Virus record (IMG/VR): IMGVR_UViG_3300025674_000476
Coordinates: 1-21,582 of that record
Direction: 5' to 3' (one strand)
DNA: 21,582 nucleotides
Source of the DNA: a virus
Below are positions 3,398-8,298 of the stretch, piece after piece. A program made the position numbers and the translations under genes. Each line of letters opens with the position of its first letter. The stretch's first letter is position 1. Under the pieces are notes generated by a model. That model saw nothing but the letters and a program-made list of their open reading frames with translations, did no database searches and was not told the origin of the DNA.

Positions 3398-3850
3398 GTG
3401 CCAAGAAAAACGAACTCTAAGCTAGAGTCGCCGCGTCGGGTCAGCCCGGCGCTGCGGCACTGGGCCGACAAGTGCGGCACCGCCAACATGATTGAGCTGG
3501 GCAACCGCATACGCGAGAAGCGCATCGCGTGCGGCATGACGGCTGGCGAAGCGGCGGCGCGTGCGGGTGACTACAGCGGCCGAACCTGGTGGCACTGGGA
3601 AGCGGGCGAACGCGCTATGGGCGTCGAGCAGCTGCTTGCGATTGCGTCGGTGTTTGACTGCAGCGTGAACGAGCTGGTGGCCGACCTGTCGATCCCAGCG
3701 ACGCACCCGATCAGCAAAGACCTGCAGCGGATTAGCATGCAGATGCTGCGCGAGTGGTGGCAGCTGCCGGAGCGCGAACGCAACGCGGTCCGCCGGATCA
3801 TTAAGACGCTCAAGCGCCGCGAGGCCAAGAATTTCAGGACGCTGGACTAA
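3398..3850 (+). CDS. XRE-family helix-turn-helix regulator
   Basis: This 150-residue protein probably starts at GTG 3398, just after an AGGG. An internal ATG at 3488 would give a shorter form that begins right at the helix-turn-helix but has no clear ribosome site. The DNA-binding domain spans about residues 31-90, with MIELGNRIREKRIACGMTA, then GEAAARAGDYSGRTWWHWEAG and VEQLLAIASVFDCSVNELV. The C-terminal part is a helix-rich segment (LREWWQLPERERNAVRRIIK), which may mediate dimerisation. It lies within the replication operon and its TAA overlaps the next ATG by one base. It could act as a Cro-like or late regulator. Its target sites are not known, but the repeat arrays in this window are candidates. 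Confidence 0.8.
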   Translation: MPRKTNSKLESPRRVSPALRHWADKCGTANMIELGNRIREKRIACGMTAGEAAARAGDYSGRTWWHWEAGERAMGVEQLLAIASVFDCSVNELVADLSIPATHPISKDLQRISMQMLREWWQLPERERNAVRRIIKTLKRREAKNFRTLD

Positions 3851-6105
3851 TGGGACACGCCGCCACGCATCTGCGTGAGCTATGGCGGAACGGGCTTCCC
3901 GACGGGCTGGTTATCGAGCTGCGCGACCTCACGAACGGCGCGGCTGCACAGCGGAGCGCGTGGCGCACGGCTGACGAACTGACCGCCATGCCGGACGCGC
4001 CCGCAACCGCCGCAACACCGCAGTTTCTAACCTATAGCCTCGCCGCCATGCGGGACCGCGCGCCGGTGCGTAACGACACCGCGCAGCTGCTGCCCTGTGC
4101 GTGGGTGGACATCGACCTGATCGCCAAAGACGACAAGGCCAGCACTGCACCCGACGCGGCCCGTGCCGCCGCTGCGCCCGTGGTTGCCAAACTGGCAGCG
4201 CTACCCATGCCGCCGTCAAGCGTGGTGTTTAGCGGCGCTGGGCTGCACGCATACTGGCGGTTGGACGACCCAGCGGACGACATTGCGCTGGTGCGCCGCG
4301 TGAACGAACACCTAGCGGGCGAGCTGGGCGGGGACCGCGCTGCCGTGAACCCTAGCCGCGTGCTGCGCCTGCCTGGCACGTACAACGGCCGCCTAGCGGC
4401 CCCGGTGCTATGCGAGCCGTGGCCCGACTACCCGCACTGGAAGCATGAGTATTACGTGGAAGACTTGCTGGACCTGCGTGCCGGTTGGGCGGCCGCTCCT
4501 GCGCTGGCACCGGCTGTCCCGGCCGACCCGGCGGCGATGGCGCTGCAGGCGGCTGGCAGTGGCGGCCCTAGCGACCGGGACTGGGCGGCGTGCGAGCAGC
4601 AGATACGCCAGGGCGTGAACTGGCACACCAACGGCCTAGCGCTGGTGGCGCACTGGGTGCAGCGTGGCGTGCCGGATGAACAGATCCACGCGCGGGCTGC
4701 GGAATGGACGCTGCCGGGCTACACCTACGATCAGACGACCCGCGAGGTGCAGGGGTTCATCGAAACAGCCGTGGCGCGCTGGGGCAGGCCCGGCGACCAG
4801 CTGCCAGCGAGCACGGACGCACCGGACGCCGCGCTAACGTATGAGCTATGGCGGGCAGAGCGCGCAGTGTTCGACGCGCGGAATGATCGCTACATCGACA
4901 CGCGGACGGGCGAGTACATGTCGCACCGGTCGTGGGAGACGGTGAACCGGCACTGGCACGACACGGAACTCACCGACAAGGGCGACGTTAAGCGGCTTAA
5001 ATGGATCGACCGCTACAAGGACGACCCAGAAAAAACGATTGTGCGCGGTACGGACGTGCTGCCTGGCGAGCCGATTATCTGCCGCGATGAACACGGCGTG
5101 GCGCGGCTGAACCTGTGGCGGCCGAATCCCGCAATCGAATGGGCGGCGGTTGGCGACCCGGACAGCGCGGCCGTGGCAAAGTTCCGGCAACTTGTGCTGT
5201 TCCTATGCGGCGACCGCCAAGACGTGGCGGACCACCTGCTGCATTGGATCGCGTGTTCGCTGTTCCGCGATGGCGAGCGCATGCGCTGGGCGATACTGCT
5301 AATCAGCGAGGAACGCGGCACCGGTAAGTCGCTGCTGGCCGACACCGTGCGCATGCTCCACTACGGCCCGGCGACCGCCTCGCTAGAAACGCTGGGGCAG
5401 CTGACCGGCAAGTTCAACGGATGGCTGGCGGGGAAGTCGTTGGTGATCTGCCAAGAGACGCTAGACGTGTCGCAGTCCGCGTTTACGGCGCTTGAGTCGT
5501 TGAAGTCGTCGATCACGGAAGAACAGACAATGATGGAGCTAAAGGGCCGCGACAAACAGATGGTCCGGGCGCACCACCGCTTTTGGTTCAACAGCAACAG
5601 CGTGGGCGGCCTGCCCTTCGATGCAAACGAGCGGCGCATCTACCCGATTGTGTGCACAGCGGCCAAGGCGTTGCCGGACGACTTCTATCTGCAGTTCGCG
5701 ATGTTCTGCAAGGCGTCGCAAGGGCTGGCCGATATTGCGGCGCACCTGCGCACGTATGCGGCCGAACCGTTGCCGCTGCGCGCCCCTGAAACGCCCGACA
5801 AGGCGCTGGTGCAGGAATCGCTAGTACCGCCGTTCGTGGAGCTGCTGAACGAGCATGCCGACAAGCGGCCCGGCCCGGTGGCGATACGTGGGCAGGCCAT
5901 GGCGGACATCGTGCGGCATCTCACGGGGCAGTCGTTCCGGGGTGGCGGGCAGGCCGAACAGCTGCGACGTGGCGGGTGGCGCAACGTAAAGGTGTATATG
6001 TCCGGGAAGCAGGTGCGGGTGTGGGTGCGGGGCGATGGGGTGCCGGACGAATGCGACGACAATCTGCGGGGCGAGATTGTGGACGGTGGGTCGCTTTGGG
6101 GTTGA
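3850..6105 (+). CDS. Primase-polymerase / SF3-like helicase
   Basis: This 751-residue replication protein has two enzymatic halves. The N-terminal half looks like an archaeo-eukaryotic (RepB/PrimPol) primase. It has the metal-binding WVDID (Asp87, Asp89), SGAGLHAYW with His133, and a D...NPSRVLRLPGTYNG motif (162-180). A helical middle segment with WTLPGYTYDQTTREVQGF (286-303) is typical of primase C-terminal domains. The C-terminal half is a DUF5906/SF3-like ATPase: Walker A EERGTGKS (487-494), a Walker B-like LVICQET (531-537), sensor FWFNSNS (578-584), and a probable arginine finger in NERRIYPI. The protein would prime and unwind phage DNA in the cytoplasm. No DNA polymerase is seen nearby, so the host replisome or distant phage genes probably extend the primers. 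Translation is coupled to the upstream regulator (TAATG). Confidence 0.9.
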   Translation: MGHAATHLRELWRNGLPDGLVIELRDLTNGAAAQRSAWRTADELTAMPDAPATAATPQFLTYSLAAMRDRAPVRNDTAQLLPCAWVDIDLIAKDDKASTAPDAARAAAAPVVAKLAALPMPPSSVVFSGAGLHAYWRLDDPADDIALVRRVNEHLAGELGGDRAAVNPSRVLRLPGTYNGRLAAPVLCEPWPDYPHWKHEYYVEDLLDLRAGWAAAPALAPAVPADPAAMALQAAGSGGPSDRDWAACEQQIRQGVNWHTNGLALVAHWVQRGVPDEQIHARAAEWTLPGYTYDQTTREVQGFIETAVARWGRPGDQLPASTDAPDAALTYELWRAERAVFDARNDRYIDTRTGEYMSHRSWETVNRHWHDTELTDKGDVKRLKWIDRYKDDPEKTIVRGTDVLPGEPIICRDEHGVARLNLWRPNPAIEWAAVGDPDSAAVAKFRQLVLFLCGDRQDVADHLLHWIACSLFRDGERMRWAILLISEERGTGKSLLADTVRMLHYGPATASLETLGQLTGKFNGWLAGKSLVICQETLDVSQSAFTALESLKSSITEEQTMMELKGRDKQMVRAHHRFWFNSNSVGGLPFDANERRIYPIVCTAAKALPDDFYLQFAMFCKASQGLADIAAHLRTYAAEPLPLRAPETPDKALVQESLVPPFVELLNEHADKRPGPVAIRGQAMADIVRHLTGQSFRGGGQAEQLRRGGWRNVKVYMSGKQVRVWVRGDGVPDECDDNLRGEIVDGGSLWG

Positions 6106-6337
6106 GATTGAGACGTTTGTCTCGTTTGGGCGGCTGAATGAGACGCTACAAGACACCTCAAGACACCTGCCTTATTTCGCTAACCCATTGAAAACATGGG
6201 CTACAAGACACCAAGACACCTAAGACACCCCATTTATTAGTAATAGAAAAAAGTAATAGGGTAACGCCGCTGTAAGCGTTTTTTCGGGTGTCTCAGGTGT
6301 CTTGTCTGTCTCGTCCTAAAAGTTGTGGTTAAGTCGC
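6106..6337. repeat. Iteron-like repeat array with inverted arms; candidate origin
   Basis: This 232-base gap between convergent genes carries AAGACACC five times in direct orientation (6150-6157, 6160-6167, 6205-6212, 6213-6220, 6222-6229). There are also two inverted copies, GGTGTCT at 6287-6293 and AGGTGTCTT at 6295-6303. A 13-base unit GCTACAAGACACC occurs twice (6145-6157 and 6200-6212). CAAGACACCTAAGACACCC (6212-6230) and GGGTGTCTCAGGTGTCTTG (6286-6304) form a 19-base inverted repeat with one mismatch around an AT-rich 55-base core. A separate GAGAC/GTCTC inverted repeat sits at 6110-6123. Such iterons beside a primase-helicase gene are typical of a replication origin. Operator or terminator functions are alternatives. 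Confidence 0.6.
6263..6284 (+). terminator. Candidate intrinsic terminator of replication operon
   Basis: The stem AACGC (6263-6267) pairs with GCGTT (6276-6280) across an 8-base loop, and a run of six T (6279-6284) overlaps and follows the stem. It lies 158 bases after the PrimPol-helicase stop, in the correct direction to end the early transcript. The stem is short. The surrounding 19-base inverted repeat could add a larger hairpin. Confidence 0.5.
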
Positions 6338-6628
6338 TTATTCGGGCGCGACACCCGCGTTTTGTTGGCGTTTCTGCTCTGCGGCCCAGTACGCAATTTC
6401 GCGCAATGCGTCGCGCCAATGCCGCGCGGCGACGGTCGCCTCTAGGTCTTGGTCGCTAACCGTCCCGGCGTCACAGACGCGCTTCATATCGGCATAGCCC
6501 CGCGCCGCGACTTCTGCGAGCGTGCGCAGCCCTTCCAGCGAAATGCTCAAGTGTGTGTCGCCCTGTGCATCCGCTGGGCCATAGCCGTGGATTTGGGAAT
6601 CGGCGAGCCAGTACATTGGTCGTTTCAT
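6338..6628 (-). CDS. Hypothetical protein, 96 aa
   Basis: This is the last gene of the leftward cassette, starting at ATG 6628 after GGAAGG on the coding strand and only 4 bases after the stop of the upstream gene. The protein starts MKRPMYWLADSQIHGYG and continues with a helical central part (SISLEGLRTLAEVAARGYAD) and another helix (ARHWRDALREIAYWAAEQ). I find no known domain, signal peptide or membrane segment. The bases next to the start (TAAACCA before ATG) are the same as for the upstream gene, suggesting a shared origin of the translation leaders. It is a soluble small phage protein of unknown role. Confidence 0.65.
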   Translation of the reverse strand: MKRPMYWLADSQIHGYGPADAQGDTHLSISLEGLRTLAEVAARGYADMKRVCDAGTVSDQDLEATVAARHWRDALREIAYWAAEQKRQQNAGVAPE

Positions 6629-6632
6629 TGGT

Positions 6633-6974
6633 TTAGCCTTCCCAGTCTTCCAGTAAATGTTCCAGCGCGCCGTACAAAACCTCGTTGAAGTGGTCCAGCT
6701 CCGAAGCGGCGCTCCCCGCGCCTTGCGCCTTCATCCGCATTAACCAAAGTTCGCTTTCATACTTCGCTAGAGGGCAGCCATCGCCGCCTTTGAACTCTGG
6801 CCGGGGTTCCGCGTCCTTTTCGACCATCTCGGCCGCAAGCGCTTTGAATCGGTCCTCGACGAGCCTTTGCGCGTGCCGCATGTTCTCAAGCAACAGCTTG
6901 GCTGTCGGTATGTCGATCTTCATCATAAGAAACGCGTCCTTGTCGTCGGTGTATATCTTGTCGATCAGGTTCAT
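6633..6974 (-). CDS. Hypothetical protein, 113 aa
   Basis: The start at ATG 6974 (MNLIDKIYTDDKDAFLMM) is chosen because an AAAAGGA ribosome site lies just upstream; a longer in-frame version to 7061 adds low-complexity basic sequence without support. The protein is largely helical with a central segment PTAKLLLENMRHAQRLVEDR and an acidic, leucine-rich C-terminus (EVLYGALEHLLEDWEG). It has no recognisable domain. It belongs to the leftward small-gene cassette and is separated from the next gene by 4 bases, so the two are very likely co-translated. Confidence 0.65.
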   Translation of the reverse strand: MNLIDKIYTDDKDAFLMMKIDIPTAKLLLENMRHAQRLVEDRFKALAAEMVEKDAEPRPEFKGGDGCPLAKYESELWLMRMKAQGAGSAASELDHFNEVLYGALEHLLEDWEG

Positions 6975-8270: not shown

Positions 8271-8298
8271 TTGCTTTTGCGTGACGTTCTGGCATAAT
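8271..8298 (+). promoter_or_regulatory. Candidate rightward promoter, possibly giving a leaderless message
   Basis: TTGCTT (8271-8276) and CATAAT (8293-8298, 5/6 to consensus) are spaced by 16 bases. Only six bases separate the -10 from ATG 8305, so transcription would start at or next to the A of the start codon. Two similar 12-base units, AGTTTTGTTACC and AGTTTTATCAAT (8248-8271), lie just upstream and may be operators in this divergent region. Confidence 0.5.

What the first reader, a model, noticed from the sequence alone, without database searches (positions are those of the whole stretch)
6106..6337. Iteron array with a 19-base inverted repeat beside the primase-helicase gene
Seen: AAGACACC-type units occur seven times in 160 bases, five direct and two inverted. 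A 13-base unit GCTACAAGACACC repeats exactly, and 19-base arms with one mismatch flank an AT-rich core that contains a terminator. Known: iterons near an AT-rich stretch next to a replication initiator gene are typical of plasmid and phage origins. Inference: this is the origin recognised by the PrimPol-helicase or by the XRE protein at 3398-3850. If so, the short motif is a new initiator site.
Basis: partly seen in the sequence, partly recalled or inferred. Interest (0 to 1): 0.78.

Follow-up and report, generated by a model that had tools for sequence, protein, structure and literature searches.

The report
Phage replication origin beside its initiator
This is most likely the replication start site of a bacterial virus, a cluster of short repeats read by the virus's own primase-helicase; the layout is already known from satellite phages, but close relatives have swapped both the repeats and the matching 24-residue 'reading finger' of the protein, which makes recognition directly testable.

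Summary
The repeats are real. All six exact AAGACACC copies in the 21.6-kb window lie at 6150-6303, in the gap between a PrimPol-SF3-helicase gene (3850-6105) and a convergent ORF, around the window's most AT-rich 50 bases. Three relatives keep an array at this spot with the same layout but a different unit: GGGACACGTT/GGGACGGG (L006, L008) and GTGACGCGTT (L007). The XRE protein is 100% identical in window, L007 and L008, and TerS and the exonuclease are about 96% or more in both, so none of them sets the repeat sequence. Window and L008 PrimPols are 96% identical, but 13 of 29 differences fall in residues 712-735, the predicted beta-wing of a C-terminal winged helix; its DNA is 60% identical between 95-96% identical flanks. 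L006 and L008 share both wing and repeat type. Unrelated phages and plasmids with DUF5906 helicases mostly carry their own inverted iteron arrays directly 3' of the gene, as P4 (crr), SaPI/PICI and SCCmec do. Best reading: the replication origin of an SF3 self-loading initiator, bound by the PrimPol C-terminal winged helix, with the wing setting specificity. A new member of a known kind. No binding or origin activity was tested. The embedded terminator and GC-skew support were not found.

The parts
3850..6105 (+). PrimPol-SF3 helicase gene (751 aa), putative initiator: AEP-type primase motifs (VDID 86-89, SGAGLHAYW 128-136), SF3/DUF5906 helicase 484-596, C-terminal winged helix about 660-730
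   Evidence: Pfam DUF5906 E=1.2e-18, RepB_primase below cut-off; PHROG primases; NrS-1 C-terminal helicase 6k9c E=1.4e-7; AF2 of residues 640-751
5980..6054 (+). DNA coding the beta-wing (residues about 711-735), the exchanged specificity patch
   Evidence: 60% nt identity to L008 between flanks of 95% and 96%; 13 of 29 aa differences; hypergeometric P=4e-14, 0 of 20000 permutations; in AF2 strands E71-78/E81-88 of the 640-751 model and the loop after them
6111..6124 (.). 14-bp palindrome-like GAGACGTTTGTCTC just after the stop codon, shared with L006 and L008; role unknown
   Evidence: sequences; alignment
6145..6167 (+). iteron cluster A: two direct units (AAGACACC at 6150 and 6160)
6200..6230 (+). 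iteron cluster B: three direct units (6205, 6213, 6222); its last two form the left 19-nt arm 6212-6230
6231..6285 (.). AT-rich core between the inverted iteron groups (about 66% AT; first 35 nt 77% AT), proposed melting site
   Evidence: lowest-GC 50-mer of the window at 6208; composition
6286..6304 (-). iteron cluster C: two inverted units (6287, 6296), right 19-nt arm
3398..3850 (+).
   Evidence: HTH_31 E=5.7e-9; 100% identical in L007 and L008, 98.7% in L006, although the arrays differ
6338..6628 (-). convergent ORF (96 aa) of unknown function bounding the array; 100% identical in L007, not found in L006/L008

Best explanation
The array at about 6145-6304 is the phage's replication origin. 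The PrimPol-SF3 helicase encoded immediately upstream binds the units as double-stranded iterons through its C-terminal winged-helix domain. Iterons in opposite orientation flank an AT-rich core, so two helicase rings can assemble facing each other, melt the core, and let the PrimPol domain prime there. A conserved recognition helix would read the shared GAC core and the beta-wing the variable flanks; relatives change wing and iterons together, so origin specificity switches as a linked cassette. Shown here: the repeats, their conserved position and layout, the co-change, the exclusion of other regulators, and the general association with DUF5906 helicases. Inferred: binding, double-ring assembly, melting, priming and the helix/wing division of labour.
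For: (1) The array sits between the initiator stop and the next gene in the window and all three full-length relatives, with 19-nt inverted arms 54-55 nt apart in window, L006 and L008 despite different sequence. (2) XRE, TerS and exonuclease stay 95-100% identical while the unit changes completely. (3) Wing and array change together: window/L008 DNA is 60% identical at 5980-6054, 96% at 6055-6105, and homology ends at 6124 where the array begins; L006 and L008 have identical C-termini and the same units. In L007 nucleotide homology is lost from 5441 and regained at 6326, just past the array. (4) The C-terminus is a predicted winged helix (pLDDT 78); the clustered substitutions lie in the hairpin and just after it, while the recognition helix is identical between window and L008. 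(5) In 22 of 25 SF3-initiator loci, including P4 with its annotated crr type-1 repeats, the 450 nt 3' of the gene has the most repeated 7-mer of its locus and exceeds all 300 shuffles. (6) SaPI Rep and Cch2 bind downstream repeats with their C-terminal domain (PMC7581432); PICI origins are two iteron sets around an AT-rich region 3' of pri-rep (PMC6092414).
Against: No binding, origin mapping or replication assay exists for this phage. Only four sequences, three of them closely related, show the co-change, amounting to two independent switches. Not every DUF5906 or AEP-SF3 phage has such an array: phiM5 and BPP-1 lack it, and Mcat7 and PCA1 are weak. GC skew does not turn at the array. The winged-helix model rests on a 4-sequence alignment and has no significant PDB fold match. 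C-terminal divergence between Moraxella phages Mcat1 and Mcat4 did not change their iteron.
Confidence: 0.84

Rival explanations
1. Stem-loop origin as proposed for pRN1: the 19-nt arms extrude a large hairpin with a loop of about 55 nt, and the PrimPol-helicase assembles on that structure rather than on duplex iterons.
For: pRN1 has the same protein design (AEP, SF3, winged helix) and an essential 21-nt stem/58-nt loop 3' of the gene (PMC4234260). The window arms (19/55) and L006/L008 arms (19/54) are very similar in size. ssDNA fold z = -6.9.
Against: The arms consist of iteron copies, and three of the seven units lie outside the 19-nt arms as direct copies. L007 lacks the 19/55 hairpin (14-nt arms/72-nt gap, or 19/142), and in other families arm spacing varies widely while the iterons persist. 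BPP-1, cited for the stem-loop model, has no iterons, so it may be a different type.
Confidence: 0.1
2. Binding sites for the XRE protein (3398-3850) or another HTH regulator, acting as operator or origin-regulatory site.
For: The XRE gene lies directly upstream of PrimPol; HTH proteins often bind short repeats (general knowledge).
Against: XRE is 100% identical in L007 and L008, whose repeats are different; the HTH ORF at 3-392 is 97.7% and that at 8281 is 98.5% identical in L008. The array lies at a convergent gene junction with no promoter-like site found.
Confidence: 0.03
3. Packaging (pac/cos) site read by the terminase small subunit.
For: Repeats near terS occur in phages (general knowledge); the putative terS is 2.2 kb away (8492).
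Against: TerS is 97% (L008) and 96% (L007) identical although the arrays differ; the array tracks the primase-helicase gene in unrelated replicons including small plasmids.
Confidence: 0.02
4. Non-functional repeat expansion or convergent-terminator DNA.
For: Intergenic position between converging genes.
Against: Mixed orientation, spacing of about one helical turn within clusters, conserved layout with turned-over sequence, no terminator found, excess over shuffles.
Confidence: 0.01

Closest known systems
SaPI/PICI pri-rep-ori replicons (SaPIbov1, EcCICFT073; PMC6092414, PMC7581432)
   Same: Iterons immediately 3' of the SF3 initiator gene, two sets flanking an AT-rich region, initiator C-terminal domain recognises them, element-specific iteron sequences.
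   Different: Here the element is a tailed phage, the primase is an AEP PrimPol fused to the helicase, and the iteron (CAAGACACC) is different. The 2018 paper called the organisation unique to PICIs; the panel here shows it in many tailed phages and two small plasmids.
Satellite phage P4 alpha protein with ori/crr (X51522)
   Same: Primase-SF3 helicase with C-terminal winged helix binding 8-nt type-1 repeats in both orientations; crr lies directly 3' of alpha.
   Different: P4 has a second repeat cluster (ori) elsewhere and two 120-bp crr copies; its primase is TOPRIM type; no second cluster was found in the window or its relatives.
pRN1 ORF904 and its 3' stem-loop origin (PMC4234260)
   Same: Same domain order (AEP, SF3, winged helix); essential cis element 3' of the gene; similar arm and loop sizes.
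   Different: pRN1 is described as lacking iterons; here the arms are iterons and further direct copies lie outside.
NrS-1 phage PrimPol-helicase (6k9c; PMC7102993, PMC8718748)
   Same: Helicase region matches 6k9c; same enzyme class.
   Different: NrS-1 uses 5'-TTTGGTTA-3' and GTG as priming sites read by its primase half; TTTGGTTA occurs once in the window at 6741, within chance.
SCCmec Cch2 (PMC7581432)
   Same: Self-loading helicase binding direct repeats directly downstream of its gene through the C-terminal domain.
   Different: Three 5-nt iterons (AAGTG) and a separate A-family CCPol-MP primase instead of a fused PrimPol.

Membership tests
SF3 self-loading initiator with 3' iteron origin (SaPI/PICI type) | SF3-type helicase encoded directly upstream of the array | tested here: met
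   DUF5906 E=1.2e-18; NrS-1 helicase match
SF3 self-loading initiator with 3' iteron origin (SaPI/PICI type) | two iteron sets flanking an AT-rich region, immediately 3' of the gene | tested here: met
   clusters A/B and C around the window's lowest-GC 50-mer, 45 nt after the stop
SF3 self-loading initiator with 3' iteron origin (SaPI/PICI type) | C-terminal DNA-binding domain matched to the iterons | tested here: inconclusive
   predicted winged helix; wing and iterons change together; binding not assayed
SF3 self-loading initiator with 3' iteron origin (SaPI/PICI type) | rep-ori segment drives autonomous replication | not testable with these tools
   needs a plasmid assay
PICI (as an element class) | satellite lacking its own full set of virion genes | tested here: not met
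   window has terminase and SU10-type portal and lies in a phage genome, so it is not a PICI
P4 alpha replicon | GTGAACA-type repeats and a second ori cluster away from the gene | tested here: not met
   unit is AAGACACC; all six exact copies are in one cluster; no second cluster of the units in G004-G006
pRN1-type stem-loop origin | large stem-loop 3' of an AEP-SF3-wH gene, conserved as structure without iterons | tested here: not met
   arms are iterons; the 19/55 hairpin is absent in L007
NrS-1 polymerase priming site | TTTGGTTA recognition site at the proposed origin | tested here: not met
   absent from 6106-6337; one copy at 6741, expected 0.16
Rep-type iteron plasmid origin (RK2/pSC101) | RepA/TrfA winged-helix initiator plus DnaA boxes | tested here: inconclusive
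   no such initiator among the ten proteins scanned; the rest of the window and DnaA boxes were not searched systematically

The most novel reading that the evidence does not exclude
Tailed phages with DUF5906 initiators diversify origin specificity by exchanging two short linked patches, the roughly 24-residue beta-wing and the iteron array, while keeping the recognition helix. The wing would then be a modular specificity dial that lets closely related replicons avoid cross-recognition.
Probability: 0.35. Interest if true: 0.62.

Novelty: new member of a known kind. Interest (0 to 1): 0.46.

Why it matters
It gives a concrete origin and initiator for an uncultured phage group and extends to tailed phages and small plasmids a layout that was described as exclusive to PICIs. 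The window/L008 pair is a natural domain-swap experiment: two 96% identical initiators with different wings and different iterons, so the residues that read the origin can be tested with one binding assay. It also offers a simple rule for finding origins of DUF5906-helicase replicons: look for inverted iterons within about 450 nt after the gene.

Tried and rejected
XRE, other HTH proteins and TerS as readers of the repeats: rejected because they are conserved while the repeats change. Searching IMG/VR for three spaced AAGACACC copies gave 103 stretches, mostly in-frame tandem repeats inside coding sequence, not origins. An inverted-array pattern gave 3 hits; the two contigs with multi-cluster arrays (L046, L128) have no SF3 helicase detected, so they do not help. 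GC-skew inflection: the maximum lies about 1.8-2.8 kb downstream of the array in window, G004, G005 and G006, near terS, and is not informative. Rfam: no match. Full-length AF2 model failed (pLDDT 38); Foldseek of the C-terminal model gave no significant hit. Search of bacterial genomes for the PrimPol found none. Extra scans with helicase, C-terminal and exonuclease queries returned only the same full-length relatives, short fragments that stop before the array, and one distant contig without this initiator.

Full report
What is there. The window is a 21,582-base IMG/VR virus fragment. Between the stop of a 751-aa gene (3850-6105) and a convergent ORF (6338-6628) lie seven AGACACC units, five direct and two inverted. 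Every exact AAGACACC in the window lies in this array. Simulated genomes of the same length and shuffles of the 450-nt stretch do not produce such clustering. The core includes the lowest-GC 50-mer of the window.

What the neighbouring gene is. It carries AEP primase motifs visible in the sequence (VDID, SGAGLHAYW), a DUF5906 SF3 helicase that matches the NrS-1 phage polymerase helicase structure 6k9c (E=1.4e-7), and a C-terminal domain that AlphaFold2 models as helix-strand-helix-helix-strand-strand, a winged helix (mean pLDDT 78). The full-length model failed, but its C-terminal part shows the same order of elements. No fold match in the PDB was significant. Upstream are a VRR-NUC protein, a RecE-like exonuclease and an XRE protein.

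Relatives. Three IMG/VR contigs encode the protein in full at 76-96% identity. Each has an array at the same place, but the unit is GGGACACGTT/GGGACGGG in L006 and L008 and GTGACGCGTT/GTGACACGTT in L007. A shared GAC core can be aligned by eye (inference). The inner inverted arms keep their size and spacing between window (19/55) and L006/L008 (19/54) although the sequence is different. Elsewhere in G004-G006 the units do not cluster.

Which protein changes with the repeats. XRE is 150/150 identical in L007 and L008; exonuclease, TerS and the VRR-NUC protein are 95-99% identical. Window and L008 PrimPols differ at 29 residues, 13 of them in 712-735 (hypergeometric P=4e-14; 0 of 20,000 permutations). 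At DNA level this 75-nt stretch is 60% identical between flanks of 95% and 96%, and homology is lost again from 6124, where the array begins. Two short patches, about 70 nt apart, thus differ together. L006 and L008, which share repeats, are identical over the last 60 residues. In L007, nucleotide homology ends at 5441 and resumes at 6326, just beyond the array, so helicase C-terminal half plus array form one exchanged block. In the model the substitutions lie in the wing hairpin and the loop after it, while the recognition helix (GGGQAEQLRR region) is unchanged between window and L008.

How general it is. Eight phages and two plasmids were picked from DUF5906 hits before their 3' regions were looked at; most showed an array of their own unit in both orientations 3' of the gene. 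With further Pseudomonas and Moraxella relatives, Stenotrophomonas S1 and P4 as positive control, 22 of 25 loci had a more repeated 7-mer in the 450 nt after the gene than in any other stretch of the locus and than in 300 shuffles; phiM5 had none, Mcat7 and PCA1 were weak. An earlier run of the same test used a filter that hid two-letter units such as TGTGTTG and is superseded. Many of the 25 are related, so the number of independent lineages is about ten. The panel's primase halves differ (AEP, TOPRIM, PriCT-2) while the helicase family is shared, so the array goes with the helicase. BPP-1, an AEP-SF3 phage, has no array there.

Known systems. [quoted passage not shown] P4 crr has the same position with mixed-orientation repeats. 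pRN1, with the same domain order as this PrimPol, needs a 3' stem-loop and was said to lack iterons; [quoted passage not shown] The present array is a candidate for such motifs in this phage group, and its hairpin potential is explained by inverted iterons.

Mechanism and limits. The best reading is an iteron origin of a self-loading PrimPol-SF3 initiator, with the C-terminal wing reading the variable part of the unit. Position, layout, co-change and exclusion of other proteins are shown; binding, melting, priming and bidirectional loading are inferred from SaPI, P4 and SV40-type SF3 helicases. The co-change rests on four sequences and two switches, so the wing claim (0.35) is weaker than the origin claim (0.84).

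Noticed in passing
L046:5484-5723 and L128:13083-13325: Four inverted clusters of AGACACC around an alternating CGCGCG core just before an ORF that may be the terminase small subunit; no DUF5906, D5_N, DUF3987 or VapE helicase was found in either record. L046's phage has a Toprim/DUF7146 protein and a 651-aa protein of unclear family about 6 kb upstream.
   Followed up: partly
L127:4872-4967: AAGACACC pairs interleaved with GTGGATAAC (DnaA-box-like) repeats in a phage that appears to have a gp4-type primase-helicase.
   Followed up: no
window:6111-6124: Palindrome-like GAGACGTTTGTCTC directly after the PrimPol stop, kept in L006 and L008 although the array after it changed.
   Followed up: no
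L124, L147, L148, L120, L152 (3' of primase): Iterons of several families share a frame TGTGNNGGG with only the two middle bases changed (TT Lodos, AA Mcat9, CA Mcat1/4, CG S1), which could be a second specificity series.
   Followed up: partly
L116 and L117 (plasmids NZ_CP104987.1, CP058022.1): Plasmids of about 9 kb typed as non-mobilizable carry a DUF5906 protein followed by GGTTACA iterons, probably their replicon.
   Followed up: partly
L026:9447-9520: 32-bp tandem repeat in which GTGACACGTTTCGCAAG alternates with an inverted GGTGTCTTGCG.
   Followed up: no
loci L010-L112: Many (AAGACACC)n matches in viral contigs are spaced by multiples of three and look like in-frame coding repeats.
   Followed up: partly
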